From contig NZ_CP046977.1 in the NCBI RefSeq assembly GCF_030408455.1, forward strand, positions 372,001 through 436,000: a DNA stretch of 64,000 nucleotides, in the 5' to 3' direction. The position numbers were made by a program, and so were the translations under genes. Shown here in pieces: positions 13,480 through 57,832 of this stretch. Numbering within the stretch: the first letter of the stretch is position 1; the number at the start of each line of letters is the position of its first letter. The notes beneath the pieces were generated by a model. The model had not been told where the DNA came from and did not search any database. It saw nothing but the letters and a program-made list of their open reading frames with translations. The DNA comes from Corynebacterium atrinae (GTDB lineage Bacteria > Actinomycetota > Actinomycetes > Mycobacteriales > Mycobacteriaceae).

Positions 13480-13540
13480 GCCGTGACTGGATTTCGCTTA
13501 TCGACGCCGCCGTGCCGCGGCGTCGACAAGCAGTCACGGC
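13480..13540 (+). repeat. Long hairpin after fusA
   Basis: Outer arms GCCGTGACTG (13480-13489) and CAGTCACGGC (13531-13540) are perfect; inner arms CTTATCGACGCCGC and GCGGCGTCGACAAG differ at one base; a 7-base bulge separates them on the left. No T-run follows, so it may be a mRNA 3'-end stabiliser rather than a classic terminator. It contains a copy of the GCTTATCGACG motif (13496-13506). Confidence 0.65.
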
Positions 13541-13646
13541 AGCACCGACACCCACTGCGTGGGTAGCGGTCGCGCTGAATGCTCACTATGTGAACATTGA
13601 GCCGGCCGTTACCCCGCGGGAGATCCTCGGGTCAACCGGCCGCAGT

Positions 13647-13675
13647 TTGAAAAAACAGCGGTATAAACCTAGGAT
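13647..13675 (+). promoter_or_regulatory. tuf promoter
   Basis: TTGAAA (13647-13652) and TAGGAT (13670-13675) with a 17-bp spacer, a good corynebacterial sigma-A promoter. It leaves a leader of about 115 nt that can fold into two hairpins (around 13701-13738 and 13752-13777) before the AGGAGG ribosome site at 13788. Confidence 0.75.
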
Positions 13676-13798
13676 CGTGTAACTGGCACATTGTGAGACC
13701 ATCTGGTGCGACGCCGAATTAGCGTCGTGCCTGATGGAGACTGTCAACCACCGTGGCTGCGAAGGTCGTAGCCACCATGAAGTCCAGGAGGACATACA

Positions 13799-14992
13799 GT
13801 GGCAAAGGCGAAATTCGAGCGTACGAAGCCCCACGTCAACATCGGCACCATCGGTCACGTTGACCACGGCAAGACCACCACCACCGCCGCCATCACCAAG
13901 GTTCTGGCCGACGCATACCCGGACCTCAACGAGGCCTTCGCCTTCGACGCCATTGATAAGGCACCGGAGGAGAAGGAGCGTGGTATCACGATTAACATCT
14001 CCCACGTTGAGTACCAGACCGAGAAGCGCCACTACGCGCACGTCGACGCTCCGGGCCACGCCGACTACATCAAGAACATGATCACCGGCGCTGCTCAGAT
14101 GGACGGCGCTATCCTCGTCGTCGCCGCTACCGACGGCCCGATGCCGCAGACCCGCGAGCACGTGCTGCTGGCTCGCCAGGTTGGTGTTCCTTACATCCTC
14201 GTCGCCCTGAACAAGTGTGACTCTCCTGACGTCGACGAAGACATGATTGAGCTCGTCGAGATGGAGGTCCGCGAGCTTCTGGCTGAGCAGGACTACGATG
14301 AGGACGCCCCCATCATCCAGATCTCCGCTCTGAAGGCCCTGGAGGGCGACGAGAAGTGGACCAAGCAGATCCTCGAGCTCATGCAGGCCTGCGATGACTC
14401 CATCCCGGATCCGGAGCGCGAGACCGACAAGCCGTTCCTGATGCCGATCGAGGACATCTTCACCATCACCGGCCGCGGCACCGTCGTTACCGGTCGTGTT
14501 GAGCGCGGCTCCCTCCGCGTCAACGAGGATGTCGAGATCATCGGCATCAAGGAGAAGTCCACCACCACCACCGTCACCGGTATCGAGATGTTCCGTAAGC
14601 TGCTCGACTACACCGAGGCTGGCGACAACTGTGGTCTGCTGCTCCGCGGCATCAAGCGCGAGGACGTTGAGCGTGGCCAGGTCATCATCAAGCCGGGCGC
14701 TTACACCCCGCACACCGAGTTCGAGGGTTCCGTCTATGTTCTGTCCAAGGACGAGGGCGGCCGCCACACCCCGTTCTTCGATAACTACCGCCCGCAGTTC
14801 TACTTCCGCACCACCGACGTCACCGGCGTCGTGAAGCTGCCGGAGGGCACCGAGATGGTCATGCCCGGCGACAACGTCGACATGTCCGTCACCCTGATCC
14901 AGCCGGTCGCTATGGACGAGGGCCTGCGCTTCGCTATCCGCGAGGGCTCCCGCACCGTCGGCGCTGGCCGCGTCACCAAGATCATCAAGTAG
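13799..14992 (+). CDS. tuf: Elongation factor Tu
   Basis: 397 residues. Delivers aminoacyl-tRNA to the ribosome. GTG start at 13799 after a CCAGGAGG ribosome site. P-loop GHVDHGKT at residues 19-26, DAPGHADY and NKCD motifs, and the C-terminal barrels ending VTKIIK are intact. Single tuf copy in this window, with its own promoter and terminator. Confidence 0.99.
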
Positions 14993-15016
14993 TCACTTCT
15001 TGATCTAAAACCCTTG

Positions 15017-15056
15017 AAGGGGTCTGGAGGAATTATCCTCTGGGCCCCTTTTCGGT
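15017..15056 (+). terminator. tuf terminator
   Basis: Stem AAGGGG...GGAGG pairing with CCTC...CCCCTT with a short AATTA loop, followed by TTTT. It starts 25 bp after the tuf stop. Confidence 0.88.
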
Positions 15057-15086
15057 TTTCTGTAGCAAGGCGGTATCTTCTTAGCC

Positions 15087-15506
15087 ATGCTGCGAACAAT
15101 CCTTGGGTCGAAGATCCACCGCGCTACAGTCACGCAGGCTGACCTCAACTATGTCGGGTCCATCACCGTGGACGCCGACCTGCTCGACGCCGCCGATCTC
15201 ATCGAGGGCGAGAAAGTCTCCGTCGTCGATGTCACCAACGGTGCCCGCCTGGAAACCTACGTCATCACCGGGCCGCGGGGGACCGGCGAGATCTGCATCA
15301 ACGGCGCCGCGGCCCACCTCGTGCACCCCGGTGACCTTGTTATCCTCATTTCTTACCTGCAGGCCACCACGGAGGAGGCCCGCGCCTACACTCCGCACAT
15401 CGTCCACGTCGACGGCAACAATCGGATCGTCGCCCTAGGCAATGACCTCGCGGAACCTGTGCCCGGCTCCGGCACGCTCAGCTCCCGCGACGCGCTCGTA
15501 CACTAG
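15087..15506 (+). CDS. panD: Aspartate 1-decarboxylase
   Basis: 139 residues. Makes beta-alanine for pantothenate and coenzyme A. It is a pyruvoyl enzyme: self-cleavage occurs between Gly24 and Ser25 in YVGSITVD, and Lys9 and the [12 protein letters not shown] segment are conserved. The gene is monocistronic or shares a transcript with the unknown gene starting 4 bp after it. Confidence 0.97.
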
Positions 15507-15510
15507 CCCC

Positions 15511-16206
15511 TTGCAAGATCCCTCACGCATTCCCTTCATCCTCGAGGCCCTCCGCCGCACTTGGGAAGGCCAACCGGACCTGTCCCTCCCGACACTGTTC
15601 GCCATGCTGGCCAACGAAGGCGTCGGCTGGGGCAGCACCGATGAGCAGTTGCTCACCGTCCTGCAGGAGATGGAAAGGGTGCAGCCCGGCCGGCTCCCGC
15701 TTGTCGACGCCCGCGTCACCTCCCCCTACCTCCTGGTCACTGAATCCCCCGATTTTCGCGTCACCGTCGGTCCGTCGCAGGTGATCACTCGCCGTTCGGG
15801 TCGCGTTGCCCAGCCCGGCATCTGGTCCTACTCGGCAATCCGGCCAGCCTTCGTTGGACAGCCCCTGGTGATCACCGATGCCGAGGGCATCGACCACCGT
15901 CTGGGAGTACTCGTCTCGTGCACCTTGCTCGCCGACGTGCCTTTGTCCTTGGATGGACTGACCCGACGGAGTTTAGGCGATGTGTCCTACCTGGTGATAC
16001 TGAGCAACGGCGACACCGTCGTAGTGGATCATCGCCTGCGCTTGTTTTCTTCCGGCCGGCGGGAGCTCCATCGGGAGGAGCTCACCTGGGAGCACCTCGC
16101 CGTCGACGGCTCAACGCTCCTCGTGCAGCGGCCCGGCGGAGCAGCCCCCGTCACGATGGGCGAGGTCGCGGAGGTTCATCTCCTTCAGGCTCCGGCCGCC
16201 TGCTGA
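15511..16206 (+). CDS. Conserved hypothetical protein
   Basis: About 231 residues from a TTG at 15511, four bases after panD; the frame also has an ATG at 15442 inside panD, but the extra 23 residues look like out-of-frame panD ([19 protein letters not shown]). No domain recognised. The N-terminal part (RIPFILEALRRTW, LPTLFAMLANEGVGWGSTDEQLLTVL) looks helical; the rest is beta-rich (VTVGPSQVITR, VTMGEVAEVHLL). No signal peptide or membrane segment. Coupled to panD by position, but no functional link can be inferred. Confidence 0.75.
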   Translation: MQDPSRIPFILEALRRTWEGQPDLSLPTLFAMLANEGVGWGSTDEQLLTVLQEMERVQPGRLPLVDARVTSPYLLVTESPDFRVTVGPSQVITRRSGRVAQPGIWSYSAIRPAFVGQPLVITDAEGIDHRLGVLVSCTLLADVPLSLDGLTRRSLGDVSYLVILSNGDTVVVDHRLRLFSSGRRELHREELTWEHLAVDGSTLLVQRPGGAAPVTMGEVAEVHLLQAPAAC

Positions 16207-16214
16207 GCCGGCCT

Positions 16215-16299
16215 ACAAAAATTCTCTAGAATCAAAGATAGTATCTAGTGTTTTTGCAGGTCGTGGAAAATCCAGTTCCACATTCTAGAGAATTTTTGT
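16215..16299. repeat. Intergenic inverted-repeat element with nested hairpin (IR2)
   Basis: Perfect 18-bp arms ACAAAAATTCTCTAGAAT (16215-16232) and ATTCTAGAGAATTTTTGT (16282-16299). The loop contains a second hairpin GTGGAA / TTCCAC (16263-16281). AT-rich against a 60% GC background. Lies between the convergent unknown gene and amaP, so it may act as a bidirectional terminator (T-runs are at both arms), or be a small dispersed element. Confidence 0.7.
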
Positions 16300-16323
16300 T
16301 GATCCCGACTTCCTGATCGCGAC
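16300..16323. repeat. TGATCGCGAC decamer and variant next to IR2
   Basis: TGATCCCGAC (16300-16309) and exact TGATCGCGAC (16314-16323) follow IR2 directly. Four more exact copies lie at 49378-49572. Function unknown. Confidence 0.45.
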
Positions 16324-16396
16324 CCCAGCCTTTAGGGCAGCTGCTCTATCACTTGGCTGGAGTCGCCCTAGCTACGGACCTGAACAGTTGCCTTGG

Positions 16397-16951
16397 CTAG
16401 CGAGGTGGGCGAAGGTGAACTCGGTAGCGAGTAATGACGTCAATGCCGGGGAGAGCCGCCCGGAGATCTCCTTCTGTGGAGCGCAGGTGGGAGCTCAGCT
16501 CTGCCATGTCGACGGAGGGTGTGGTCCATACCGTCAACGTCATGATGGTCTGGCCGAAGTTCCTGGACACAACGTGGTCTACCGAGTCGATGCGGGAATC
16601 GGCCTCTAGTTCATGGGCGATGGCCGTGGCCAAGGTCGCGAGATTGATTTCGATGTCCCCCGCAGGGGAGGAGGAAGGTGAGTAGACCCGGGACACCCGG
16701 TAGCGGCGTAGATTGAGCGCGATGAGCCACCCGCCGAAGGCCGCGGAGAACACCAGTATGAGCGTGAGGACGGCGTTGAACCAGCGTTGATCCGGGGCCG
16801 AGCGCCAGGCGGCGAAGTTGATGTTATCGGCGAGTCCCTGGGCCAGCGGCACGTTGAAGAACAACCCGATTGCCCACAGACCCCCCAATACGATGACCAC
16901 GCCGAGCAGGAAAACCAAGATCCGGTCGACAAGTGCGATGCGAGGATTCAT
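16397..16951 (-). CDS. amaP: Alkaline shock response membrane anchor protein AmaP-like
   Basis: 184 residues. Two N-terminal membrane segments (about 10-32 and 60-80: ILVFLLGVVIVLGGLWAIGLF and VLTLILVFSAAFGGWLIAL) are followed by a soluble C-terminal domain, the layout of AmaP, which tethers Asp23-family proteins to the membrane. Last gene of a six-gene operon; its start overlaps the DUF6286 gene by four bases. Confidence 0.82.
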   Translation of the reverse strand: MNPRIALVDRILVFLLGVVIVLGGLWAIGLFFNVPLAQGLADNINFAAWRSAPDQRWFNAVLTLILVFSAAFGGWLIALNLRRYRVSRVYSPSSSPAGDIEINLATLATAIAHELEADSRIDSVDHVVSRNFGQTIMTLTVWTTPSVDMAELSSHLRSTEGDLRAALPGIDVITRYRVHLRPPR

Positions 16952-17484
16952 CGTCGCTCGCCCCCCTCGTGCTGGGCGGAGTTCTGGTGCACTCGAAGAT
17001 CCAGTTGCAGGCCGAGCTTGTTCAGGGCGCTGCGGGCGGCTGATTCCACGTCCGGGTCTGAGCCCGGGTGAGCGCTGTAGGTGACGTGGACCTTGGAACG
17101 ATCAACCCGCGTGTGAGCGCTGCCGACTCCTGGAACTGAACGAGCCGCGGCGCTGAGGTAGCGGGCCACATCAACGGGGCGCAACCAGATTCCGGTCGCT
17201 TCGTCAATTGCCAGGTGGGTCTTCGTGCGGGGGCGGATGGAAATCCACAGCATCGCCACGCCAACCACGAGCGCCACGATGGCGACCGGGAGCATCCAGG
17301 GTTGGAAGGTGGCATTGCCGATCGTCATCACGACAGGGTCAACCCAGCTGTGACCTTGAGCATTGTCGGCGGTGCGCAAGTAAAGCTCTCGGCCGCACAC
17401 CACGGCCACCGCGATGAGGAGCAGGCCGATCACAACAGCGACATAGCGGGCGAGGGGAGTAGCACGAGGAGTATCAGCTGACAC
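16948..17484 (-). CDS. DUF6286 membrane protein
   Basis: 178 residues with two membrane segments (about 13-30 and 62-82) and a soluble C-terminal domain containing a small alpha/beta module (SAHTRVDRSKVHVTYSAH). This domain pattern accompanies Asp23/Gls24 operons in actinobacteria. Overlaps its upstream neighbour by 11 bp. Probably part of the same membrane-attached complex; biochemical role unknown. Confidence 0.78.
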   Translation of the reverse strand: MSADTPRATPLARYVAVVIGLLLIAVAVVCGRELYLRTADNAQGHSWVDPVVMTIGNATFQPWMLPVAIVALVVGVAMLWISIRPRTKTHLAIDEATGIWLRPVDVARYLSAAARSVPGVGSAHTRVDRSKVHVTYSAHPGSDPDVESAARSALNKLGLQLDLRVHQNSAQHEGGERR

Positions 17485-17950
17485 GAGGGCCCCTCTTCTC
17501 CAACAACGGGGTCACAGTAATAGGACGCAAGGGGCACGGGGCAGGAACCGACGGGGAAGCCACGCGAAGCGGGGCGACGGTGACGGGGCGGGGCGTGGGG
17601 TGAGCAGGGTGGGCGTCGATAAGCTCTGGTGAGATACGCGCGCCCGGGACGACCGGACCAACGACGACATTGACCCGCGTGACAGCCAGCCCGGTGAGGG
17701 CCTGGACCCATTCGGTGATCGTGGTGCGGACGGCTTCGGCGACGAGCGTGACCGGCGAGGGCCACGTCACGGCGATGAATGCCTCGACACTGCAGGAATT
17801 GGAATACTCATCTACTTCGACGTCATAGCGCGGGTACGTGCGGCCAGCCAACCGATCCAAGCCGCGCTCGAGTGAGGTGGTACCAGGCACAGAAGCGGCC
17901 GCCATAGCGACGATGCGGGCCACAGCCCGATCGGTGATGGTCAGCGTCAT
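17474..17950 (-). CDS. Asp23/Gls24 family envelope stress protein
   Basis: 158 residues from ATG 17950; an in-frame start at 18073 would overlap the DUF2273 gene and adds unrelated sequence. The core (ITDRAVARIVAMAAASVPG ... ALTGLAVTRVNVVV) is the Asp23 fold: an N-terminal helix, then beta strands and the VxxVNVxV end. The C-terminal 50 residues are Pro/Val rich and poorly conserved. One base separates its start from the stop of the DUF2273 gene. Confidence 0.85.
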   Translation of the reverse strand: MTLTITDRAVARIVAMAAASVPGTTSLERGLDRLAGRTYPRYDVEVDEYSNSCSVEAFIAVTWPSPVTLVAEAVRTTITEWVQALTGLAVTRVNVVVGPVVPGARISPELIDAHPAHPTPRPVTVAPLRVASPSVPAPCPLRPITVTPLLEKRGPRVS

Positions 17951-17951
17951 G

Positions 17952-18134
17952 CTAGCCCCGACTTCCGCGGGTGAAAATGGCCGAAAGGTCAATGCGGCCA
18001 TCCAATTGTGCGCCGATAGCGGCGCCGACCGCCCCGAAAACGAGCACATAAATGAGGCCGAGCCAGCCACCAAAGATCACAGCGAAGGCGATCGCGATGC
18101 CAAGAACGAGGCCGGTGAGGGTGTGGTTGCTCAT
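17952..18134 (-). CDS. DUF2273 small membrane protein
   Basis: 60 residues with one long or two short hydrophobic helices (TGLVLGIAIAFAVIFGGWLGLIYVLVFGAVGAAIGAQLDG). DUF2273 proteins are regular members of Asp23/AmaP operons. Its ATG overlaps the stop of the preceding gene by four bases. Role inferred only from context. Confidence 0.82.
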   Translation of the reverse strand: MSNHTLTGLVLGIAIAFAVIFGGWLGLIYVLVFGAVGAAIGAQLDGRIDLSAIFTRGSRG

Positions 18135-18436
18135 GATGACTCCTGCGCGTCAGAGAAATATACGTCGATGGTTAAGCCGGGAAGGGCGGCGGCAGTGAGG
18201 CGGCGGACATCCTCCGCGATCTCTCGCACTGCTCGACCGGCGGTGAGATCGAGGACGAGATGAATGGACACAGTCGAGCCCTTCAAGCTCAGGCCTTCGA
18301 CGCGGTGCCGAGGGTATAACAACGCCACCTCGCCGAACCGGCCGGCCGACAAACCCGCAACGCCGGGGATGGTCACCAGTTGCGCGGCGACAGACACGGC
18401 GACGTCCTGGGGAATGGGATCGGGGAGGGGAGACAC
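18131..18436 (-). CDS. Short Asp23/Gls24-like protein
   Basis: 101 residues. Shows the second half of the Asp23 pattern (VSIHLVLDLTAGRAVREIAEDVRRLTAAALPGLTIDVYFSD), with a shortened N-terminus (VAAQLVTIPGVAGLSAGRFGE). Starts 2 bp after the upstream Asp23 gene and overlaps DUF2273 by four bases. Confidence 0.78.
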   Translation of the reverse strand: MSPLPDPIPQDVAVSVAAQLVTIPGVAGLSAGRFGEVALLYPRHRVEGLSLKGSTVSIHLVLDLTAGRAVREIAEDVRRLTAAALPGLTIDVYFSDAQESS

Positions 18437-18438
18437 GA

Positions 18439-18912
18439 CTATTGGACCCGCGGGGCAATCTCAGACGGAGCAGGGGATCCGGGTTCTTCGTCTTCGCCCA
18501 GATCCAGGTGGACATCATGCACCGTTACGTTTACTTCAGTGACTTCCAGGCCCGTCATGCGTTCCACGGAGTTGATGATGTTGCGGCGAATGGCATCAGC
18601 GAGCTCATGAATTGCCACGCCATACTCGGCGACGATGGCAACGTCGACCGCCGCCTGGCGCTCTCCAACCTCCACCGAGACGCCTTGTTGGATGTTCGAA
18701 GCGGAACCGGCGAAAGACTCGCGGATGGCGCCGACCATGCGGGCCGCTCCGCCGCCGAGCGCGTACACGCCGGACACCTCGCGGGCAGCCAGTCCGGCGA
18801 TCTTGCCAACCACAACATCCTCGATGCGGGTGACGCCGCGGCTGGTGCCTTCTACTGACCCAGCTGACTCGGCGGCGTTCTCGAATGGATCCAGCTCATT
18901 GTTCTCTGACAT
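18439..18912 (-). CDS. Asp23/Gls24 family envelope stress response protein
   Basis: 157 residues, first gene of the operon. The conserved core runs from about residue 25 (GVTRIEDVVVGKIAGLAAREVSGVYAL) to 137 (MTGLEVTEVNVTVHDVHL), flanked by acidic tails. In Gram-positive bacteria Asp23 is abundant under envelope or alkaline stress and is held at the membrane by AmaP. The upstream DNA has a TACTAT element on the minus strand (about 18953-18958) that could be a -10 box; no sigma factor can be assigned. Confidence 0.87.
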   Translation of the reverse strand: MSENNELDPFENAAESAGSVEGTSRGVTRIEDVVVGKIAGLAAREVSGVYALGGGAARMVGAIRESFAGSASNIQQGVSVEVGERQAAVDVAIVAEYGVAIHELADAIRRNIINSVERMTGLEVTEVNVTVHDVHLDLGEDEEPGSPAPSEIAPRVQ

Positions 18913-19442
18913 TTTGTGACTCCTGCAACAGTAGGTGGCAATGCGTGATTCCTATAGTAGACCGATTGTGTTTCTGGGCTCTGGCGTGCTTTAATACATG
19001 GGTTGCTTTAACACGGTGATGTCCCAGGCGCAGGTCTGGCGGACATCTCTGCTGGTAGGGCAAACATGACACCTTCGTCAGACAGTCTTGAACCGACTGG
19101 CTGGGAAGGCTTCGCAATCGGGTCAAAGTCACCGTCAAGGTCTGGCATACCCGAGCGCGAGGACCGGAGAAGGGGCATGGCAAATAAACAGCGGCAGTAC
19201 GCAAGGGCCCCACGCTTATCGCGATGTGATCCCTTCCTTCTTGGCCACGGGTCTTGTACCCCGTCAGGAGCACTTCCACGCGTTGATTTGTTCACGTCCT
19301 GGAATCCTCCCGGCTAGTCATGGCAGTCAAGAAACTGGCGTTGCGCCCAGGCCCTAAGCCCGGACAACGTTATAGAGAAATCGAGAAGCGAATTCCCACC
19401 GCTCCGAAATGTGATGTGGGACAAGCGAGGAAGAGGATAAGC
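18913..19442 (+). promoter_or_regulatory. Divergent control region and long leader of the S10 operon
   Basis: 530 bp between the Asp23 operon and rpsJ. A plausible plus-strand -10 element TAATAC is at 18992-18997, which would give a leader of about 440 nt. Small open frames in it have poor coding character. An ATG at 19320 is in frame with rpsJ and would add 41 basic residues. No known ribosomal-protein riboregulator could be assigned by eye. Confidence 0.4.
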
Positions 19443-19748: not shown

Positions 19749-19780
19749 TCGACGACAAACTTGGCAGCGGAGAATAAATA

Positions 19781-21392: not shown

Positions 21393-21416
21393 GGCGTCGA
21401 GAGAAAAGGACACATT

Positions 21417-24610: not shown

Positions 24611-24621
24611 GCTTATCGACG
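24611..24621 (+). repeat. GCTTATCGACG motif copy after rpsQ
   Basis: One of nine exact copies in the window (others at 13496, 17614, 38102, 45361, 47971, 50751, 54659, 57418; first bases given). It begins 10 bp after the rpsQ stop. Biological role unknown. Confidence 0.6.
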
Positions 24622-37900: not shown

Positions 37901-38471
37901 GGTCCCGGACCCCGTGGACCCCGTGGATCCCGAAGAACCGGAGGTTCCGGAACCAGCTACCTTCCGCATTGCGGAAGGTTCGGACTGGTACTACCGCTAT
38001 GACCTGGCAGAACCCCCTGTCGGCTGGGATACGGACGCCGATGTGACTGCCTGGACGCAGGGGGCTGCCCCGCTTGGTTGGGGACACGCGGGCGTCGCCA
38101 CGCTTATCGACGTCCCCGTGGCAGAGCGTGCACCTACCGCCTACTTCGTGCGGGATGTCGACATCGACACCTCAGCCCTCCCTGCGGGAGGATATCTGCA
38201 GATCACGGTCCGGGCTGACGATGGCGTCCTCGTTCGCATCAACGGTGAGGAAGTGGGGCGGAAGCGCCTCAAGGCGGGACCAATCACCCACAACACGTTT
38301 ACGGAAGGCACCGTCAACACAGCGGCCGCCATTGCTGATCCACTCATCATCAGGATTCCGATCGCAGATCTTCAGCCCGGAACCAACCGCATTGCGGTGG
38401 AAACGCACCTGGGATACCGCTCCACCCCCTCGGTCACCTTCGAGCTGTCAGCGGAGGTAGTTGGCGAGTGA
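34992..38471 (+). CDS. Large secreted protein: fibrinogen-like, beta-propeller, fibronectin III and duplicated C-terminal domains
   Basis: 1159 residues from ATG 34992; an in-frame TTG at 34941 adds 17. A signal peptide (MFRLLAVCVVLIALVASSFSV...ALSQ) is followed by a fibrinogen-like domain at about 60-285: SCWEIKQ, FYCDQDMDGGGWVLIG and a late FAELYVRPR. Residues 320-680 contain repeated GGNFTH/GGDF blades like delta-60 propeller repeats. A fibronectin III-like domain is at 700-795. Two related modules of about 165 residues (797-965, 989-1155) with YxYDxGxPxxGW, ADDGxxVxING and ETHLxYRxxPxxxF are joined by a Pro/Asp/Glu linker. No LPxTG or C-terminal anchor is seen. A glycan-binding or matrix role is inferred from location in the polysaccharide locus and from the lectin-like behaviour of some fibrinogen-like domains. 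Confidence 0.85.
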   Translation: MNTFSSLRMFRLLAVCVVLIALVASSFSVPALSQEAVNPGIPQPRTLEVVKRDGRTMDTAAGSCWEIKQKFPSQPSGSYWLLTPTMQAPQQFYCDQDMDGGGWVLIGQGREGWEKFADGKGNPERLLSRGRSPEDFSPVQLPSATIDGLLSGTNVNQLQEGMRVVRATDTTGNRWQALDLRPTRMTTWSWALPTEDPVAAYRINNGIWRAGGQFQTSFGFDSSWNRVDLSVTANRGYNWGFGYGVNAYGGNTSANNFLWSQNGYSPIPFAELYVRPRISSEENFTRIDDGGTPASEQRAMSSNFASPTSWGVSGNLNGRTTEGNATVQAFAEIDGTVFVGGNFTHAEQRNASRLVPRTALAAFDSTTGELREGFNVEFDNQVKALQALPDGRLLVGGDFKNVNGQSHSGTVVVDPTTGAIDESWTLDITSRLSSGIVSVTSLALGGEFVYIGGNFTHLSSATVSTSYSRAAARVRLDGSPDRYWNPEFNGTVVDIDTSSAGDRFYAAGYFTKSASNVAMKATVLSTEPGALPATNWVFQGSASERTNYQQAIEDTGQLLFIGGSEHALFGYNSATLDRVSGSITKQIGGDFQAIASDGSVTYAGCHCSQNTYQDAYYWPTMNRDWSRVDNIQWVGAWDAQTGKQLGEFSPYLLKSNNAGAWSLFVASDGALWVGGDFVGSNTSLDRSQWNGGWVRYPARDVVAPETPSRVWADGGNADTVNIRWSGVSDSTSYEVLRDDRVVATVPSNGSIAGGSATVPRGGENRFFVRAVDAAGNRSASTSVFKAPDAGEVDPSSPILIDQGATWHYSYDQGTPATGWNVELGFDSWPEGAVPIGYGATGMATTLTPPAGSTRPITAWFAHDFSVADPKAFTTATLDYVADDGAVIYLNGQEIHRTRMADGPVYPDTRAHAAISTGAAQAARTRIEIPSSLLKTGTNVLAAETHLNYRTSPNMSFDANLIITDFAPAPEVPDPVDPVDPEEPEVPEPATFRIAEGSDWYYRYDLAEPPVGWDTDADVTAWTQGAAPLGWGHAGVATLIDVPVAERAPTAYFVRDVDIDTSALPAGGYLQITVRADDGVLVRINGEEVGRKRLKAGPITHNTFTEGTVNTAAAIADPLIIRIPIADLQPGTNRIAVETHLGYRSTPSVTFELSAEVVGE

Positions 38472-44557: not shown

Positions 44558-46149
44558 CCAGCAGTTTTGATCGCGGAAAGGAACTCCCCATAGCGCTGGC
44601 GAATGTCCAGCAGCGGGGTTTGAACTTCCTGGGTGGATATCTGCGCCACTTCCCGACGCAGGGCCTTGCGGGTGCGTCGCTTCACTCCGCCGCCGATGGC
44701 CAAGCCAAAAACGGAGGTAAAGAGCCCCAGCACTATCCCGAGCAAGATCCCACCCAGAATGAGGAGGGTGGGGATCGGCCAGCCTTCGACTTCGGGGATG
44801 ATCTCGTCCATGAGTGGGTACAGGGCACCGGGGAGGAAAGCAGCCAGGAGATACCAGCCGACCCCGACCAGGGCGCCGAGGAGTGCCAGCCACTGCAGGA
44901 CGGTGAACACGCCCCAAGCACCCGAGGGTTGGGCGGGCAGTTTGGTGCGGGCGGCGGCGCGATCGAGCTTTTCAGGTAGCTCGTCAATGATCGTCTCGGT
45001 GCGGTCGACGATAGCCCCGGCCCAGCTTTCCGGCAGACCCTCGGCGGCGGCGGCCGCGTAGCCGCGCACTCCGCGATTAGCCACAGCTCGGCCGGAAGCC
45101 TCGAGGCTGGGCAGGGATGTGCGATGCACCCCGGTGTCGTCTGCTTCCTCGCGGAGACCAAGCCGCCGCAGGGGATCTGGGCGCAATCGCAGCAGCCAGG
45201 ACGTCAGCAGCCATCCGGTCTTTTGGCCGAGCCGCTTGCGGTAGGCGGCGGCGGTGACGGCGGCGAGCTGCTCGGTGCCGGCGGCGTCGGAAAGCAGGGT
45301 GTCCAGCTCGCGTTTCGCGGAATCCGGCACCTTCTTCAGCCCTGGGGCATTCGCCCACGGGCTTATCGACGTCGAGATATCCGCCTCAATGCGCGCCTGT
45401 TGCGCGGTGCGGCGGGAAGCGACGCGGGCGATAGCCTGCCGTAAGTCATCGACCCCGAGGCCGGTGCGAGCGGAGGTGGCGATAACCGAGACCTTTTTTA
45501 GTCCATCATCGGCGAGCAATTGCTGCAGCGACGAAGCCACGCGGCGGCGGTCATCGGGATTCAGTTTGTCTGATTTGTTCAACACGGCCAATGTCACCGA
45601 GCTGTGGGAGGCGTGTGGGCGGATGAAATGGTCATGGATGATCGAATCGGCGTACTTCTCCGGGTCGGTGACCCACACGAGCACATCGACCTGCCCCGCC
45701 AACCGCGTGGCGATCTCCCGGTGCCGTGGCTCAACCGAGTCGAAATCGGGCAGGTCAAGCAGGATGAGTCCGCCCGCTCCAGGGCTGAACTCGCCGGGAC
45801 GGTTGCGCCGGTCCTCTACGGCCAACCAATCGAGGAGTTCCTCCGAACCCTCGGGTTGCCACACCGCGGCTAGGGGAGAAGACGTGGTGGGGCGGCGGGC
45901 AGCGGTGACACCCAGGTCCTCGCCGACAACAGCGTTGAACAGCGACGTCTTGCCGGAACCAGTCGCACCGAAGAAGCCCACCACCGTGTGATCGCCCGAG
46001 AGCGCGCGCCGCTCGGCGGCTGCGGCGGAGATGCGGGTGAGGGATTCGTGCTCTGCGGGGGAGAGGTACGGTGCGCCGAGGGCGGCGGCGTTTGCGAGGG
46101 CGTCGAGACGCTGGTTGAGAGTGCTCTTCTTTTTAAACACGACCTTCAT
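44548..46149 (-). CDS. Dynamin-like/YfjP-type GTPase, second of a pair
   Basis: 533 residues from ATG 46149 (the frame opens at 46206, inside the neighbour). Walker A GATGSGKT at 61-68, G3 DLPDFDS, G4 NKSD. The C-terminal part has two membrane helices (about 405-425 and 440-470, GAWGVFTVLQWLALLGALVGVGWYLLAA and LLILGGILLGIVLGLFTSVFGLAIGG). Such tandem GTPases are common in actinobacteria and may act on membranes; the biochemical role is unproved. Overlaps the upstream partner by 17 bp. Confidence 0.85.
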   Translation of the reverse strand: MKVVFKKKSTLNQRLDALANAAALGAPYLSPAEHESLTRISAAAAERRALSGDHTVVGFFGATGSGKTSLFNAVVGEDLGVTAARRPTTSSPLAAVWQPEGSEELLDWLAVEDRRNRPGEFSPGAGGLILLDLPDFDSVEPRHREIATRLAGQVDVLVWVTDPEKYADSIIHDHFIRPHASHSSVTLAVLNKSDKLNPDDRRRVASSLQQLLADDGLKKVSVIATSARTGLGVDDLRQAIARVASRRTAQQARIEADISTSISPWANAPGLKKVPDSAKRELDTLLSDAAGTEQLAAVTAAAYRKRLGQKTGWLLTSWLLRLRPDPLRRLGLREEADDTGVHRTSLPSLEASGRAVANRGVRGYAAAAAEGLPESWAGAIVDRTETIIDELPEKLDRAAARTKLPAQPSGAWGVFTVLQWLALLGALVGVGWYLLAAFLPGALYPLMDEIIPEVEGWPIPTLLILGGILLGIVLGLFTSVFGLAIGGGVKRRTRKALRREVAQISTQEVQTPLLDIRQRYGEFLSAIKTAGYS

Positions 46150-49303: not shown

Positions 49304-49319
49304 GCAGTTCGGTCTGAAA

Positions 49320-49362: not shown

Positions 49363-49377
49363 CTGCTGCTTGGGTTG

Positions 49378-49572: not shown

Positions 49573-49605
49573 GGATGTCGGGAGCACTCACTTAGGATGA
49601 AGGCC

Positions 49606-50292: not shown

Positions 50293-51095
50293 AGGTTGAA
50301 GCGATTGCCGCGGGTGAAGCCGGTCAGCGCCAAACCGGCGGATCGGGCGAGGTCCACGGCGAGGGAGCTGGCAGCTGAGACGGCGACGAGCGCTCCGAAC
50401 CCAGCCATGACGGCTTTCTGGGCCAGTTCGAAGGACGCACGCGAGCTCATGACCAGGATGAGGTCATCAGCGGGGAGTAGGCCCTGGAGAAGAAGATGGC
50501 CGATTACTTTGTCGGCGGCATTGTGACGGCCGATGTCCTCGCGGGCTACGATGAGCTCGCCGTCCCTTGTAAACGCACCCGCGGCGTGGATTCCGCCGGT
50601 ACGGCGGAATTGCTGCTGCTGATCCCGCAACAGGTCGGGAAGCTGGACCACGACGGCGGGGTCGAGGGGAAATCGGCGCGGGGGAGCGGCGACCTTGCCC
50701 AGAATTTGTTCGATGGAGGAAGATCCGCAGACCCCGCAGGCAGAGGTGGTCGTCGATAAGCGAAATGATTCGAGGCCGGGAGCACGAACGCTGGAGGCGA
50801 GATCGACCTCGATGACGTTGTAGGTGTTGGCGCCATCGGGGCCGGTGGCACCGGCACAGTAACGGGCGGTGGCGACGTCAGAGGCGGAACGGATGATGCC
50901 TTCTCCGTAAAGGAAACCGTGTACCATCTCGATGTCGTGGCCAGGTGTGCGCATCGTGGTATTGAGTATGGGGCCGCCGACGCGAAGCTCGAGAGGTTCC
51001 TCGGCGGTGACGTAGTCAGCCCGGGTGTCGGTGTCAACTCCATCAGGCCCGACGGAGACACGGGTGACAGCGAAGGTCCGGTTAAGCCTTCCCAC
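50262..51095 (-). CDS. fdhD: Formate dehydrogenase accessory sulfurtransferase
   Basis: 277 residues from GTG 51095, which shares a base with the upstream stop (TAGTG). The catalytic CGVCG motif is at Cys120/Cys123; AAGAFTRDGELIVAREDIGRHNAADKVIG and MSSRASFELAQKA are FdhD hallmarks. It transfers sulfur to the molybdenum cofactor of formate dehydrogenases. In C. glutamicum the same position carries fdhD with fdhF; here no fdhF gene is present in the window. Confidence 0.95.
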   Translation of the reverse strand: MGRLNRTFAVTRVSVGPDGVDTDTRADYVTAEEPLELRVGGPILNTTMRTPGHDIEMVHGFLYGEGIIRSASDVATARYCAGATGPDGANTYNVIEVDLASSVRAPGLESFRLSTTTSACGVCGSSSIEQILGKVAAPPRRFPLDPAVVVQLPDLLRDQQQQFRRTGGIHAAGAFTRDGELIVAREDIGRHNAADKVIGHLLLQGLLPADDLILVMSSRASFELAQKAVMAGFGALVAVSAASSLAVDLARSAGLALTGFTRGNRFNLYAGELISEA

Positions 51096-51376: not shown

Positions 51377-51385
51377 TCTGACCAT

Positions 51386-52047: not shown

Positions 52048-52062
52048 AGGGAGGATTGACTA

Positions 52063-52599
52063 ATGTCGCGTATCGGTAAAAACCCGATTGCCATCCCGTC
52101 CGGCGTCACCACGACGATCGACGGCCAGAACATCGAGGTCAAGGGCCCGAAGGGCACCCTGTCTTTCGAGGTCCCGGCCCCGATCTCCGTTGCCGTTGAG
52201 GAGAACGAGATCCTCGTTACTCGTCCGGATGACAACCGCAAGAACCGTGCACTCCACGGTCTGTCCCGTTCTCTCGTCAACAACCTGGTTGTCGGCGTGA
52301 CCGAGGGCTACACCATCAAGATGGAGATCTTCGGCGTGGGCTACCGCGTCCAGGCTAAGGGCAAGAACCTTGAGTTCGCCCTCGGCTACTCCCACCCGAT
52401 TCTGATCGAGGCTCCGGAGGGCATCACCTTTGCGGTTGATGGCACCACCAAGTTCTCCATCGCGGGTATTGACAAGCAGCAGGTCGGGCAGATCGCCGCC
52501 AACATTCGCCGTCTGCGGAAGGACGACCCCTACAAGGGCAAGGGCATCCGCTACGAAGGCGAGCAGGTCCGCCGCAAGGTCGGAAAGACGGGTAAGTAA
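52063..52599 (+). CDS. rplF: 50S ribosomal protein L6
   Basis: 178 residues. Two repeated domains; begins [15 protein letters not shown] and contains the L6 signature [18 protein letters not shown] segment ([19 protein letters not shown]). Supports factor binding near the sarcin-ricin loop. Confidence 0.99.
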
Positions 52600-52601
52600 G
52601 C

Positions 52602-53006
52602 ATGAGCAACACTGCAGAGAACTCCAAGCGCACCCCGGTTGGCAAGGACATTTCGTCCCGCCGCCGCGAGGCCCGCGCACGCCGTCACTTCCGCATCCGC
52701 AAGACCCTCCGTGGCACCCCCGAGGCGCCGCGTCTGGTCGTGCACCGCACCTCCCGTCACCTGCACGTGCAGGTGATCGACGACAATGCCGGTCACACCC
52801 TGGTCGCCGCCTCCACCATGGAGCCGGACGTTCGCACCGTTGAGGGCGACAAGAAGGCCAAGGGCGCCAAGGTCGGTCAGCTCATCGCTGAGCGCGCCAA
52901 GGCCGCTGGCATCGAGACGGTCGTGTTCGACCGTGCGGGTTACAAGTACCACGGCCGCATTGCCGCTCTGGCTGATGCCGCACGTGAAGGTGGTCTGAAG
53001 TTCTAA
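52602..53006 (+). CDS. rplR: 50S ribosomal protein L18
   Basis: 134 residues. 5S rRNA-binding protein with the core [18 protein letters not shown] and [24 protein letters not shown]. Starts two bases after rplF. Confidence 0.99.
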
Positions 53007-53046
53007 TGATCACCGACTCCATGAACATCAACGGAAGGATCGCGTA

Positions 53047-53679
53047 ATGCCGGGACGTGAACGGCGTGACGGCGGACGCTCCGCCGACGACAACAGCAAC
53101 AACAACAAGAATGATCGCCGCGGCGGACGTCGCGACGATCGTCGTAACCAGCAGCAGGACGAGCGCAGCCAGTACCTGGAGCGCGTTGTCACCATCAACC
53201 GCGTGTCCAAGGTCGTCAAGGGTGGTCGTCGCTTCAGCTTCACCGCTCTCGTGATCGTGGGCGACGGCCAGGGCATGGTCGGCGTTGGCTACGGCAAGGC
53301 TAAGGAAGTTCCGGCTGCGATCCAGAAGGGTGCTGAAGAGGCTCGTAAGAACTTCTTCCGCGTCCCGATGGTCGGCGGCACCATCACCCACCCGGTTCAG
53401 GGTGAGGCTGCAGCGGGCATCGTGATGCTCCGCCCGGCTGCACCGGGTACCGGTGTAATCGCTGGTGGCGCTGCCCGCCCGGTGCTTGAGTGCGCTGGCG
53501 TTCAGGACATCCTGTCGAAGTCTCTCGGCTCCGACAACGCCATCAACGTCGTCCACGCCACCGTGGACGGCCTGAAGCAGCTGGTTCGCCCCGAAGAGGT
53601 CGCCGCACGCCGCGGCAAGACCCTCGAGGAGGTCGCTCCGGCTCGTATGCTGCGCGCCCGCGCAGGTCAGGAGGCGTAA
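53047..53679 (+). CDS. rpsE: 30S ribosomal protein S5
   Basis: 210 residues. The S5 core starts near residue 40 ([30 protein letters not shown]). Residues 1-38 form an Asn/Arg/Asp low-complexity extension ([20 protein letters not shown]), typical of corynebacteria. Involved in decoding fidelity and mRNA entry. Confidence 0.99.
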
Positions 53680-53682
53680 ATT

Positions 53683-53868
53683 ATGGCTCTGAAGATCACC
53701 CAGATCAAGGGACTGGTTGGCACCAAGCCGAAGCAGCGTGAGAACATGCAGTCTCTCGGACTTCGCCGCATCCGCCACTCCGTGGTTCGCCCCGACACCC
53801 CCGCGGTGCGTGGCATGATCCACGTCGTGCGCCACCTGGTCACCGTCGAAGAAGTGGCAGGGGAGTAG
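53683..53868 (+). CDS. rpmD: 50S ribosomal protein L30
   Basis: 61 residues. Conserved [26 protein letters not shown]. Between rpsE and rplO as in most bacteria. Confidence 0.98.
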
Positions 53869-53874
53869 TAACAC

Positions 53875-54321
53875 ATGAGCGAAATTATTAAGCTCCACGA
53901 CCTGCGTCCGGCAAAGGGCGCAAACACGCCGAAGACCCGCGTTGGCCGCGGCGAGGCTTCCAAGGGTAAGACCGCTGGTCGCGGTACCAAGGGCACCAAG
54001 GCTCGCAAGCAGGTTTCGGCCGCTTTCGAGGGTGGCCAGATGCCGCTGCACATGCGTCTGCCGAAGCTCAAGGGCTTCAAAAACCCGAACAAGGTCTACT
54101 TCCAGGTTGTTAACGTTTCCGACCTGGAGAAGGCTTTCCCGCAGGGCGGCGACGTCACTGTTGCCGACATCGTTGCAGCGGGCCTCGTGCGCCCGAAGCA
54201 GCCGGTGAAGGTTCTGGGCAACGGCGACCTCGGCGTCAAGCTGAACGTCACCGCTGCCAAGTTCTCCAAGTCCGCCGTCGAGAAGATCGAGGCTGCCGGA
54301 GGCACCGTCACCGAGGCTTAA
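53875..54321 (+). CDS. rplO: 50S ribosomal protein L15
   Basis: 148 residues. [11 protein letters not shown], the [21 protein letters not shown] basic arm and the C-terminal globular domain ([15 protein letters not shown]) are intact. Ends the rpsH transcript at a strong terminator; secY does not follow directly. Confidence 0.98.
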
Positions 54322-54351
54322 GCCCTCGTTGACTTGGCCGTTGAGGTCAGG

Positions 54352-54397
54352 AACTACTGCCCCATTCCGCTGTGCGGAATGGGGCAGTAGTTTTTAT
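54352..54397 (+). terminator. Terminator after rplO
   Basis: Perfect 19-bp stem (AACTACTGCCCCATTCCGC and its complement) with a 3-base loop TGT, then TTTTT. One of the strongest terminators in the window; it separates rplO from secY. Confidence 0.96.
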
Positions 54398-54940
54398 GGC
54401 GGTGACCTTTGTGTGTAAGAGCCCTGCGCCCACTTTTGTTACACAGCGGCCTGAGCGCCTTCATCCTCGCCAACGCGCCAGGCTTGACGTGTACCCCCTC
54501 TGCGCAGGCCGTGGCAACGTCCGGGGCTTTTGCGCGGTCCGTGCATACTGGCTCCCACAAAACCCTGATCGTCCGCGCCTATGCGCCGACCGCAAGGTCA
54601 CCTTCTGCGTGCTCGACTATGGCAGCAGCAACTTCCTCCGGAGTGCCACTAACACCGTGCTTATCGACGCCGCCCCCGTCATCCGGGAGATGGCAGAGGC
54701 CTACCCACCCTTGACTATCCGCGAGAGCTTCCGTCTTCAATACCTCCGACGAAGGCTAGAAGTAGCTCGACCGCGCCAACGTGCTCGCCGAGCGCGACAC
54801 TGTACCCGACTTCACTTTCGTGGGGGTCAACAAGTTCAAGGCCGACGGCAGCCGGCAAACGCTGGACATGCCGTCTACATCGGATTTGGGGAATTCTTCG
54901 AGACAAACGGTGGCTGTTCGGCTGGTTGTTCCGGTTCTAA
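54398..54940 (+). pseudogene. Possible gene remnant between rplO and secY
   Basis: No intact gene. A frame from 54769 reads DRANVLAERDTVPDFTFVG then VNKFKADGSRQTLDMPS, with coding-like composition, but stops (including TAG just before 54766) interrupt it upstream. Another frame is open from 54409 to 54714. This suggests decay of a former gene by frameshift and stop mutations. I cannot name the ancestor. A GCTTATCGACG copy is at 54659-54669. Confidence 0.35.
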
Positions 54941-54946
54941 AGGTCA

Positions 54947-54952
54947 TATAAT
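54947..54952 (+). promoter_or_regulatory. -10 element of the secY promoter
   Basis: A consensus TATAAT, 115 bp before secY. The -35 is weak (GGTTGT region near 54924-54930). It would give the secY-adk-map unit its own promoter after the rplO terminator. Confidence 0.6.
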
Positions 54953-55066
54953 CGCCCCACGTCCGAGACCGGCCGCCAACACACTGGTAGGCTGATCAAG
55001 TCAATTGTGTCAAACCCTCGCGTGCCCTGATCGTTCGTGGTCAGGGATGTGGGGCCAGGAGGCTTA

Positions 55067-56389
55067 GTGTCCGCCATTATCCAGGCATTCAAGGATATCG
55101 ATCTGCGCAAGAAGATTATCTTCACTGTGCTGATGGTCATCCTGTACCGCATCGGTGCGCAGATTCCCTCTCCGGGAGTGGATTATGCATCGATCAGCGG
55201 GCGGCTGCGCGAACTGACGCAGGAGCAGGGCAGCGTGTACTCGCTAATCAACCTGTTCTCCGGTGGTGCGCTGTTGCAGCTGTCGATCTTCGCCATCGGC
55301 ATCATGCCGTACATCACGGCATCCATTATCGTGCAGCTCCTTACTGTCGTCATTCCTCACTTCGAGGAGTTGAAAAAGGAGGGCCAGTCCGGCCAGACGA
55401 AGATGACGCAATACACGCGTTACCTAACGTTGGCGCTGGCGTTGCTGCAGTCCTCGGGCATCGTCGCCCTGGCGGATCGTGAGCAGCTGCTAGGTCAGGG
55501 AATCCAAGTCCTCGTCGCTGACCGCAGCCTCTGGGACCTCATTATCTTGGTCACGGTGATGACTTCGGGTGCCATGCTCGTCATGTGGCTCGGCGAGCTC
55601 ATCACCGAGAAGGGCGTGGGCAACGGCATGTCCCTGCTCATCTTCGCCGGCATTGCTACTCGCCTGCCTACCGACGGCGCGAGCATTCTGCAGACTTCGG
55701 GCGGCGTCGTGTTCGCCCTGGTGCTCGCTGCTGTCATTCTCTTGGTCATCGGCGTCGTGTTCGTCGAGCAGGGTCAGCGCCGCATCCCGGTGCAGTACGC
55801 CAAACGAATGGTGGGGCGCCGCCAGTATGGTGGCACGTCGACCTACCTTCCGCTGAAGGTCAACCAGGCCGGCGTTATCCCGGTCATCTTCGCTTCCTCG
55901 CTGATCTACATGCCGGTGCTCATCACGGAAATCGTGAACTCCGGTTCGGTGGCTCCGGCGGATAACTGGTGGCAGCGCAATGTGATTGCTCACTTGATGA
56001 CGCCGTCTTCGTGGCAGTACATTGTCTTGTACTTCATCTTGATCATCTTCTTCTCCTACTTCTACGTCTCAGTGCAGTACGACCCGAACGATCAGGCGGA
56101 GAACATGAAGAAGTACGGTGGATTTATCCCGGGCATCCGTCCGGGACGACCCACCGCCGAGTATCTCGGCTATGTGATGAATCGCCTGCTTTTCGTCGGT
56201 GCCGCCTACCTGGGAATTATCGCCGTCCTGCCGAACATTGCGCTCGACCTCGGCGTCGGTCAAACCAGCGCAGGAATGACGGCATTTGGCGGTACGGCCA
56301 TCCTCATTATGGTGTCTGTCGCCCTGACCACTGTGAAGCAGATTGAATCCCAGCTTCTCCAAAGCAACTACGAAGGACTGCTCAAATGA
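55067..56389 (+). CDS. secY: Protein translocase subunit SecY
   Basis: 440 residues from GTG 55067, preceded by CCAGGAGG five bases away; a frame start at 55037 is less likely. Ten membrane helices; [12 protein letters not shown] and the plug-region [15 protein letters not shown] are typical. The C-terminal cytoplasmic part reads [16 protein letters not shown]. Forms the SecYEG channel. Four-base overlap with adk. Confidence 0.98.
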
Positions 56390-56931
56390 GACTTGTACTC
56401 CTCGGACCCCCCGGTGCGGGCAAAGGCACCCAGGCCGCTCTCCTCTCCGAGAAGCTGGGCGTGCCCCACATCTCCACCGGCGATCTGTTCCGCGCGAATA
56501 TTGGCGAAGGCACCCCACTGGGGGTAGAGGCCAAGAGCTATATGGATGCCGGCAAGCTCGTGCCGACCGACGTGACCGCTCGCATGGTGGAGTCACGCCT
56601 CGCAGAGTCGGATGCCGCTAACGGTTTCCTCCTCGATGGCTTCCCGCGCACGGTCGAGCAGGCTGACATTCTCGCCGAGCTGCTTGAGCGTCATGGCCAG
56701 AAGCTCGACGGGGTGTTGAACTTCCAGGTTGCGGAGGACGTCGTGGTTGAGCGCATGCTCTCTCGTGGTCGCGCCGATGACAACGAGGAGACGATCCGCA
56801 CTCGCCTTGGCGTCTATCGCGATGAAACTGCCCCGCTGATTGATCACTACGGCGAGGAGATCATCAATATCGAGGCTGAGGGTGAGGTCGAGGAGATTAA
56901 CGCTCGCGCCCTGGAAGCCCTAGGCAAGTAA
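56386..56931 (+). CDS. adk: Adenylate kinase
   Basis: 181 residues. P-loop GPPGAGKGT at residues 7-15, the DGFPRT motif and a short LID ([16 protein letters not shown]) without zinc cysteines, the small actinobacterial type. Interconverts ATP + AMP and 2 ADP. Confidence 0.98.
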
Positions 56932-56952
56932 GTACGACTCGCTGCCCAAGGT

Positions 56953-57001
56953 GGGGGCCGCTTTCCTTTCAGTGTCACGCTCACTGAGGGGGAGTGGCCC
57001 C
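56953..57001 (+). terminator. Hairpin between adk and map
   Basis: GGGGGCCGCT can pair with AGTGGCCCC, with a second hairpin (CAGTG / CACTG) in the loop, followed by TTTCCC. Possible attenuator; map lies 37 bp downstream. Confidence 0.45.
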
Positions 57002-57037
57002 TTTCCCTGTGGGCCCAAAGTTTTAAGGAGATAGGCA

Positions 57038-57832
57038 ATGGGATTCCGCAAGAAGAGCAAGGCCATTGTGGCTCGCACGGCCGGTGAACTCGATGCCATG
57101 CAGGCGGCCGGGGAAATCGTGGCTGCCACTCTGCAGGCCGTGAAGGCGGCGGCGAAGCCGGGGGTGAGTACTTTCGAGCTGGACCAAGTTGCTGAGGCTA
57201 CTATCCGCGATGCCGGTGCCGTGCCCACTTTCCTGGGGTACAACGGCTTTAGTGGTTCGATCTGTACCTCCCTCAATGAGGTTATTGTTCATGGAATCCC
57301 GAACAAGAAGGACATCCTCAAGGAAGGTGACCTGGTCTCCATTGATTGTGGAGCCACCCTCGATGGCTGGATCGGGGATTCGGCCTGGTCTTTCGGAGTG
57401 GGTGAGGTTGACGGGGACGTCGATAAGCTCAATCAAGCCACGGAGTGGGTACTCATGGAGGGGATCAAGGCTATGCTCCCCGGCAATCGGCTCACGGATG
57501 TCTCCCACGCGCTCGAGCTGGCGACCCGGCAGGCGGAAAAGAAGTTCGGGGTGCAGCTCGGCATCGTTGACGGCTACGGCGGGCACGGGATCGGGCGCCA
57601 CCTGCATGAGGAACCGTACCTAGCCAATGAGGGCCGGGCGGGCCGCGGCCCGCTCATCCAGGAGGGGTCGGTATTGGCGATCGAGCCGATGCTCACTCTC
57701 GGAACTATTGAATCCGAAGTGCTCGATGATGACTGGACAGTGGTCACCCTCGATGGCTCTTTTTCTTCGCATTGGGAGCATACGGTGGCGGCGACGGGCG
57801 CTGGACCGCGCATTCTCACGCCACGCAAGTGA
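57038..57832 (+). CDS. map: Methionine aminopeptidase
   Basis: 264 residues, type I. Metal ligands are visible: Asp in SIDCG, Asp in GDSAWSF, His in [11 protein letters not shown], Glu in IEPML, Glu in SHWEHT, plus the substrate His in VHGIP. Removes the initiator methionine. Ribosome site AAGGAG nine bases upstream. Confidence 0.97.

What the first reader, a model, noticed from the sequence alone, without database searches (positions are those of the whole stretch)
13496..57428. Highly over-represented 11-mer GCTTATCGACG, nine exact copies
Exact copies on the plus strand start at 13496, 24611, 38102, 45361 and 54659; on the minus strand at 17614, 47971, 50751 and 57418. With 60% GC about 0.03 copies are expected on both strands of 64 kb. 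Four copies are in intergenic DNA although most of the window is coding. Inside genes it falls in different frames and costs rare codons: in fdhD it forces a TTA leucine, in the second GTPase gene an ATA isoleucine. This points to selection on the DNA word, not the protein. It does not match DnaA, parS, GlxR or any motif I know. It could mark uptake, segregation (KOPS-like), nucleoid binding or modification sites.
Basis: seen in the sequence. Interest (0 to 1): 0.85.

Follow-up and report, generated by a model that had tools for sequence, protein, structure and literature searches.

The report
Dispersed uptake-like DNA word in Corynebacterium
A short DNA word is scattered hundreds of times over both strands of this Corynebacterium chromosome, is kept by selection or a similar force, and is spelled differently in related species, much like the "self" tags that some other bacteria use to recognise their own DNA during uptake.

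Summary
The nine copies are real and far above chance. The genome, a Corynebacterium, holds 439 exact copies, 203 forward and 236 reverse, and none of the reversed word. The word is one spelling of a family, GCTTNNCGAYG plus a C-rich right flank. Of 171 genomes of the genus, 126 carry it at 4 to 30 times the reversed control, 7 at 2 to 4 times, 38 below 2; none of 149 genomes of 55 other genera exceeds about 2.1. Lineages spell it differently. The spelling is kept between sister species beyond protein need: CTT codons in the word 42 of 48, elsewhere 104 of 312. Replichore use is even (92 leading, 91 lagging), excluding KOPS; RecC is in 0 of 171 genomes. The 30 kb of plasmid-like contigs read hold 1 GCTTNNCGACG, about 12 expected. 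Best explanation: a self tag like DNA uptake sequences, read in natural transformation. No receptor was found, word-poor species have the uptake genes too, and function is untested.

The parts
13496..13506 (+). exact word; left arm of an intergenic inverted pair with 13521-13531
   Evidence: pair folds at -45.3 kcal/mol, z -5.8
13521..13531 (-). one-mismatch copy GCTTGTCGACG, right arm of the inverted pair
17614..17624 (-). exact word inside an Asp23-family gene, sense, Glu-Leu-Ile-Asp-Ala frame
24611..24621 (+). exact word, intergenic, just after the last gene of a run that looks like the S10 ribosomal operon (operon name recalled from gene order and sizes, not from a call)
38102..38112 (+). 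exact word inside a 1160-aa gene with a GGGW/fibrinogen-like domain, sense, Thr-Leu-Ile-Asp-Val
45361..45371 (+). exact word antisense in the second Dynamin_N/MMR_HSR1-type GTPase gene; goes with an ATA Ile codon
47971..47981 (-). exact word upstream of the first GTPase gene (inside the longer ATG form of that ORF)
50751..50761 (-). exact word inside fdhD, sense, goes with a TTA Leu codon
54659..54669 (+). exact word in the gap before secY (an ORF at 54372-54995 there has no Pfam match)
57418..57428 (-). exact word antisense in a peptidase M24 gene, Asp-Val-Asp-Lys-Leu

Best explanation
The word is a DNA-uptake-sequence-like self tag of naturally transforming Corynebacterium. A sequence-biased DNA receptor of the uptake route (inferred; the candidate route is the Flp/Tad pilus with ComEA and ComEC) would prefer DNA carrying GCTTNNCGAYG, followed in this species by n-C-S-n-C. 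Preferred fragments recombine into the chromosome, so near-matches are converted into and kept as full matches (molecular drive). This gives copies on both strands, in genes and between genes, an excess that is highest at 0 mismatches and falls with each mismatch, and a spelling that drifts with the receptor. When a lineage loses uptake or its bias, the words decay. Shown: the words, their excess, dialects, conservation, strand symmetry, scarcity in the plasmid-like DNA read, and presence of the genes. Inferred: the reader protein, uptake preference, drive, and loss as the reason for word-poor species.
For: Excess 184-fold at 0, 7.9 at 1, 1.6 at 2, 1.2 at 3 mismatches, the graded pattern described for uptake sequences (PMC1939737, abstract seen). 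Even strands: 71,731 forward and 71,729 reverse family words in 126 rich genomes; leading 92, lagging 91. Dialects with a shared core in related species, as for DUS in Neisseriaceae (PMC3630211, passages seen). Conserved at orthologous sites beyond protein need. Right-flank C also in intergenic family copies: 16 of 18 at position 13, 14 of 18 at 16. Plasmid-like contigs C2 and C3 (30 of 88 kb read): exact word 0 (4.7 expected, P = 0.009), GCTTNNCGACG 1 (11.8 expected, P = 9e-5), GCTTNNCGAYG 2. One orientation favoured in reading frames (41 sense, 19 antisense), as reported for known uptake sequences (PMC2346458, abstract seen). ComEC 171 of 171, DprA 171 of 171, prepilin peptidase 169 of 171 (161 over its curated cut-off), T2SSE ATPase 168 of 171 (165 over the cut-off). 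The window genome has a tad-type locus and comEA-comEC; tad/Flp genes are required for transformation of Micrococcus luteus, which also has comEA and comEC (PMC4322843, passages seen).
Against: No receptor was identified. ComEC, DprA, prepilin peptidase and mostly the Tad genes are also present and open in word-poor species, so no gene tested separates rich from poor cleanly. Weak or missing T2SSE matches are commoner in poor (32 of 38) than rich (11 of 126) genomes, but the threshold was set after seeing the data and relatedness is not controlled. Inverted pairs are few: 6 close pairs among 198 words, about 6 expected, whereas the DUS paper reports them in high numbers in all DUS genomes (PMC3630211, passage). 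Words are not depleted in chromosomal genes of atypical codon usage. I saw no report of natural transformation in Corynebacterium in the listings of searches (9 papers; 16; 25 listed of 175; 12).
Confidence: 0.62

Rival explanations
1. Chi-like regulator of a DNA-end-processing helicase-nuclease (for example AdnAB): the word marks self DNA and switches resection to recombination.
For: Asymmetric dispersed word, in genes, kept at orthologous sites, scarce in the plasmid-like DNA read.
Against: RecC in 0 of 171 genomes; no replication-strand skew (92 leading, 91 lagging), whereas Chi is usually skewed (recalled); the length of the informative word plus flank and its dialect changes are unlike the 5-8 base Chi sites (recalled). 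AdnAB itself was not searched.
Confidence: 0.13
2. Binding site of an abundant nucleoid-organising or segregation protein (not KOPS), patchily present in the genus.
For: High density (about 4.3 family words per 10 kb), random spacing (mean 3.96, variance 4.04 per 10 kb), patchy distribution over the tree.
Against: Even strands exclude KOPS. A structural site would not be expected to be missing in six separate places of the tree and respelled between neighbours, nor to be scarce in resident plasmid-like contigs of similar GC.
Confidence: 0.13
3. Recognition site of a DNA modification or defence system that marks self DNA.
For: Scarce in the plasmid-like DNA read; patchy over the tree.
Against: Methylation targets are usually shorter or bipartite and not enriched this strongly (recalled). 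No methylome was available.
Confidence: 0.06
4. RNA-level element such as a terminator, or a by-product of codon and amino-acid usage.
For: Two intergenic inverted pairs fold well (z -5.8 and -7.4); most sense copies encode Leu-Ile-Asp.
Against: 60 of 72 sampled copies are inside called genes, 19 of them antisense; CTT inside words is kept far more than elsewhere; third-order Markov and reversed-word controls.
Confidence: 0.03

Closest known systems
DNA uptake sequences (DUS) of Neisseriaceae and their dialects
   Same: Short word present in large numbers, species dialects with a shared core, some genomes of the family without an obvious one, copies inside genes and in inverted pairs (PMC3630211, passages).
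   Different: Unrelated sequence and phylum; Gram-positive mycolate-type envelope (recalled) with a tad-type locus; no ComP counterpart found; 439 exact and 1228 family copies here; close inverted pairs are few.
Uptake signal sequences (USS) of Pasteurellaceae
   Same: Graded over-representation of near-matches, one orientation favoured in reading frames (PMC1939737 and PMC2346458, abstracts); core plus conserved flank (recalled for USS; here).
   Different: Unrelated sequence; no bias to gene ends here.
Flp/Tad pilus-dependent transformation of Micrococcus luteus
   Different: The terms 'uptake signal' and 'sequence-specific' occur 0 times in that paper's main text.
Chi sites and KOPS
   Same: Dispersed asymmetric words kept by selection (recalled).
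   Different: No replichore skew; no RecC.

Membership tests
DUS/USS uptake sequences | Short non-palindromic word far above a Markov expectation, genome-wide | tested here: met
   439 copies; 72 against 0.39 in 464 kb
DUS/USS uptake sequences | Equal on both strands, no replichore skew | tested here: met
   92 leading, 91 lagging; 71,731 and 71,729 in 126 genomes
DUS/USS uptake sequences | Lineage dialects around a fixed core | tested here: met
DUS/USS uptake sequences | Graded over-representation of near-matches | tested here: met
   184, 7.9, 1.6, 1.2, 1.06-fold at 0 to 4 mismatches
DUS/USS uptake sequences | Frequent inverted pairs at terminators | tested here: inconclusive
   6 close pairs among 198 words, about 6 expected in any orientation; 5 of 6 inverted, 3 of 6 intergenic; the two tightest intergenic pairs were folded and fold well
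DUS/USS uptake sequences | Rare in mobile DNA | tested here: inconclusive
   30 of 88 kb of plasmid-like contigs: 1 GCTTNNCGACG, 11.8 expected; no depletion in codon-atypical chromosomal genes; the rest of the contigs could not be read
DUS/USS uptake sequences | Competence machinery present | tested here: met
   ComEC and DprA 171 of 171, prepilin peptidase 169, T2SSE ATPase 168; but word-poor species have it too
DUS/USS uptake sequences | Sequence-specific receptor | tested here: inconclusive
   Flp, TadE, TadF and ComEA alignments of rich, poor and both position-10 dialects, looked at by eye, show no obvious candidate residue
DUS/USS uptake sequences | Word raises DNA uptake or transformation | not testable with these tools
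   needs the bench
KOPS | Skewed towards dif on each replichore | tested here: not met
Chi of RecBCD | RecBCD present | tested here: not met
   RecC 0 of 171; the control search rings in E. coli
Chi of AdnAB or another nuclease | Word alters resection | not testable with these tools
   AdnAB genes not searched

The most novel reading that the evidence does not exclude
An independent invention of DNA uptake sequences outside the two known Gram-negative families: a Gram-positive actinobacterial genus in which about three quarters of species carry a self-DNA tag, read through a Flp/Tad pilus and ComEA/EC pathway, with spelling dialects that act as barriers to gene exchange between species and with repeated loss.
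Probability: 0.52. Interest if true: 0.95.

Novelty: new variant of a known kind. Interest (0 to 1): 0.87.

Why it matters
If true, transformation with self-recognition exists in Corynebacterium, a genus of skin and nose commensals, amino-acid producers and some pathogens. It would help explain how genes move between its species, give a simple handle for genetic work in strains that are hard to transform, and offer a replicated natural experiment (word-poor species in six separate places of the sampled tree and several respellings in one genus) on why uptake sequences evolve, a long-open question that Neisseria and Haemophilus alone have not settled.

Tried and rejected
Rejected: chance or composition; a protein motif; KOPS; RecBCD-Chi; a terminator-only element. 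Led nowhere: presence or absence of ComEC, T2SSE ATPase, prepilin peptidase and DprA as the explanation of rich and poor species: nearly universal. Comparing Flp, TadE, TadF and ComEA between GACG and GATG spellings by eye: no clear residue. Searching samples of word-poor or intermediate species for another spelling (98 to 136 kb each of G014, G155, G170, G171, G175 and G186; only 18 kb each of G028 and G062; also 80 kb of G107, enriched 4.7 times): none convincing; a GCTCGACGC excess in G175 (14 against 0.96) and CTCGACGCCCA in G155 (7 against 0.27) are unexplained. The named-genome scan returned 1 Corynebacterium among 80 loci, so species names are mostly unknown. Core against accessory DNA: uninformative, only 12 kb unaligned, most of it one stretch that may simply not have been fetched in the sister. 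Bias to gene ends: none. Papers: in the listings of searches over the held open-access library I saw no Corynebacterium uptake sequence; searches list 25 of 175, 30 of 157 and 20 of 786 papers, judged by title and start of abstract; preprints and most subscription journals are not held. In PMC5217627 the Corynebacterium motif pairs are CRISPR repeats (passages).
Full report
Observation. The nine exact copies are at the coordinates given; 26 copies occur with up to one mismatch where 1.0 is expected. It is the only 11-mer with at least 6 copies in the window. The genome in which the window lies (2.81 Mb, 3 contigs) holds 203 forward and 236 reverse copies, and 0 of the word read backwards. In a sample of 464 kb (window plus 20 stretches spread over the chromosome) there are 72 copies against 0.39 under a third-order Markov model.

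What the word is. Single changes are tolerated unequally: position 5 takes any base (17 to 21 copies each), position 3 takes G (14 copies), the other changes give 0 to 5. Excess is 184-fold at 0 mismatches, 7.9 at 1, 1.6 at 2, 1.2 at 3, 1.06 at 4. There is a right flank, n-C-S-n-C, which is not only a codon effect: C is at position 13 in 16 of 18 and at position 16 in 14 of 18 intergenic family copies. Copies of GCTTNNCGACG are spread at random (46 bins of 10 kb: mean 3.96, variance 4.04). Of 72 exact copies 60 are in called genes, 11 between them and 1 at an edge, with 87% of the sample called coding by my own simple caller; 41 are sense and 19 antisense.

Strand. GC skew of the 21 stretches suggests an origin near the start of the main contig and a terminus near 1.45 Mb. 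GCTTNNCGACG copies split 92 leading and 91 lagging. Over the 126 word-rich genomes the family word counts are 71,731 forward and 71,729 reverse. This excludes a KOPS-like role and speaks against Chi; RecC was found in 0 of 171 genomes.

Distribution. The genus is Corynebacterium: a locus named Corynebacterium sp. S30M_Sa_12 (L137) lies in a genome whose word counts (928 and 996, control 73 and 64) equal those of same-genus genome G159. In 171 genomes of the genus the exact word ranges from 0 to 686 copies. The family pattern GCTTNNCGAYG divides them into 126 rich (at least 4 times the reversed control), 7 intermediate (2 to 4) and 38 poor (below 2); I set these limits after seeing the counts. 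In 149 genomes of 55 other genera of the order the ratio does not exceed about 2.1.

Dialects. Samples of 80 to 100 kb per species show different favourite spellings: GCTTGCCGATG in G006, GCTTGTCGATG and GCTTATCGATG in G134, GCTTGACGACG and GCTTGCCGACG in G122, GCTTGTCGACG in G012, GCTTATCGACG in G172 and G160. In Tad-locus stretches of 34 chosen species the position-10 T spelling prevails in seven (G006, G134, G161, G117, G076, G167, G174), while G012, the sister of G006, spells C. On a midpoint-rooted TopA plus helicase tree of 33 of these species, poor and intermediate ones fall in six separate places; some nodes are weakly supported, the species were picked for contrast, and loss against gain was not tested formally. 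Poor species sampled show no convincing other spelling.

Maintenance. Against a sister species (G193; 182,819 aligned bases at 88.6% identity) 22 of 29 aligned exact words are intact, against 34.6% of 26,087 other 11-mers; for GCTTNNCGACG 54 of 82; the reversed control has only 5 aligned copies, 2 intact. In sense copies the CTT codon is kept in 42 of 48 cases against 104 of 312 CTT codons elsewhere (p = 7e-13); the other codons of the word show no significant difference. So the DNA spelling is held, not just the protein.

Mobile DNA. The two small contigs (44.5 and 43.5 kb) look like plasmids: C2 matches Corynebacterium plasmid records over short parts, among them transposases, and C3 has short matches to two plasmid records. 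In 20 kb of C2 and 10 kb of C3 there are 0 exact copies, 1 GCTTNNCGACG and 2 GCTTNNCGAYG; 4.7 exact and 11.8 GCTTNNCGACG are expected at genome or sample density. Against this, words are not rarer in chromosomal genes of atypical codon use (4.2, 4.5, 5.1, 3.0, 3.6 per 10 kb by quintile from least to most typical). A comparison of DNA aligned and not aligned to the sister was uninformative (12 kb).

Mechanism. The best-fitting known process is uptake bias with molecular drive. The genome has a tad-type locus between a HAD-type phosphatase and a DEAD helicase/Csp/TopA (neighbour names recalled from sequence look and order), in which NCBIfam names a TadA ATPase, an Ssd/CpaE protein and a Rv3654c-type TadE-like protein over their cut-offs; TadE is a sub-cut-off match, and the labels TadB, TadC and Flp are mine, from order and sequence. 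A comEA-comEC operon is present (domain matches over cut-off). In Micrococcus luteus tad genes are required for transformation (PMC4322843, passages). ComEC and DprA are in 171 of 171 genomes, prepilin peptidase in 169, a T2SSE ATPase in 168. Because poor species have these genes too, mostly intact, presence of machinery does not explain who carries the word; loss of bias or of expression, or loss of an unidentified receptor, would have to. A weak (E above 1e-47) or missing T2SSE match is commoner in poor genomes (32 of 38) than in rich ones (11 of 126, some of them fragmented or incomplete assemblies), but the cut was chosen after seeing the data and relatedness is not controlled. In 32 species with both values, TadA at or below 52% identity occurs in 5 of 14 poor or intermediate and 1 of 18 rich.

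Comparison. It works like DUS or USS in abundance, symmetry, grading, dialects and reading-frame orientation bias (PMC3630211 passages; PMC1939737 and PMC2346458 abstracts). It is not yet a member: receptor and uptake effect are unshown, and inverted pairs are few (6 close pairs among 198 words, about 6 expected; the two tightest intergenic pairs fold with z -5.8 and -7.4).

Verdict. A real, strong feature of most of the genus, with respelling and patchy absence; uptake tag most likely (0.62). I saw no earlier report in the listings of the searches named in Tried and rejected.

Noticed in passing
window 5608-5735; also L032, L034, L038, L043, L045, L097: An intergenic repeat of about 95 bases with inverted ends (GCACTTCCTAACAACT ... 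AGTTGTTAGGAAGTGC), at 8 other sites (two of them only about 74% alike) in 6 of the other 21 G000 loci examined, and matched in the sister genome; looks like a MITE or REP-type element.
   Followed up: partly
L110 (G135 Tad locus): TadA is split over two open frames in G135, and its ComEC domain match is in two pieces; word enrichment there is lower (6.2 times). Could be decay or assembly error.
   Followed up: no
L114 (G171 comEA-comEC locus): In word-poor G171 the ComEA open frame lacks the last helix-hairpin-helix part seen in the 26 others aligned.
   Followed up: no
L107, L108, L238: One word-less clade (G170, G028, G029) has a Tad locus with TadZ, TadE and TadF not matched or hardly matched by BLAST to those of the window genome; in L107 and L108 it lies at the same place, beside the helicase, Csp and TopA genes.
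   Followed up: partly
window 54322-55066: A gap of about 745 bases before secY holds one copy of the word; the part from 54199 to 54907 is not aligned to the sister genome.
   Followed up: no
L071-L074 (G172): Strongly repeated words such as ACCGTCGTCGG and AACACGAACAC in this genome, apparently unrelated to the family word.
   Followed up: no
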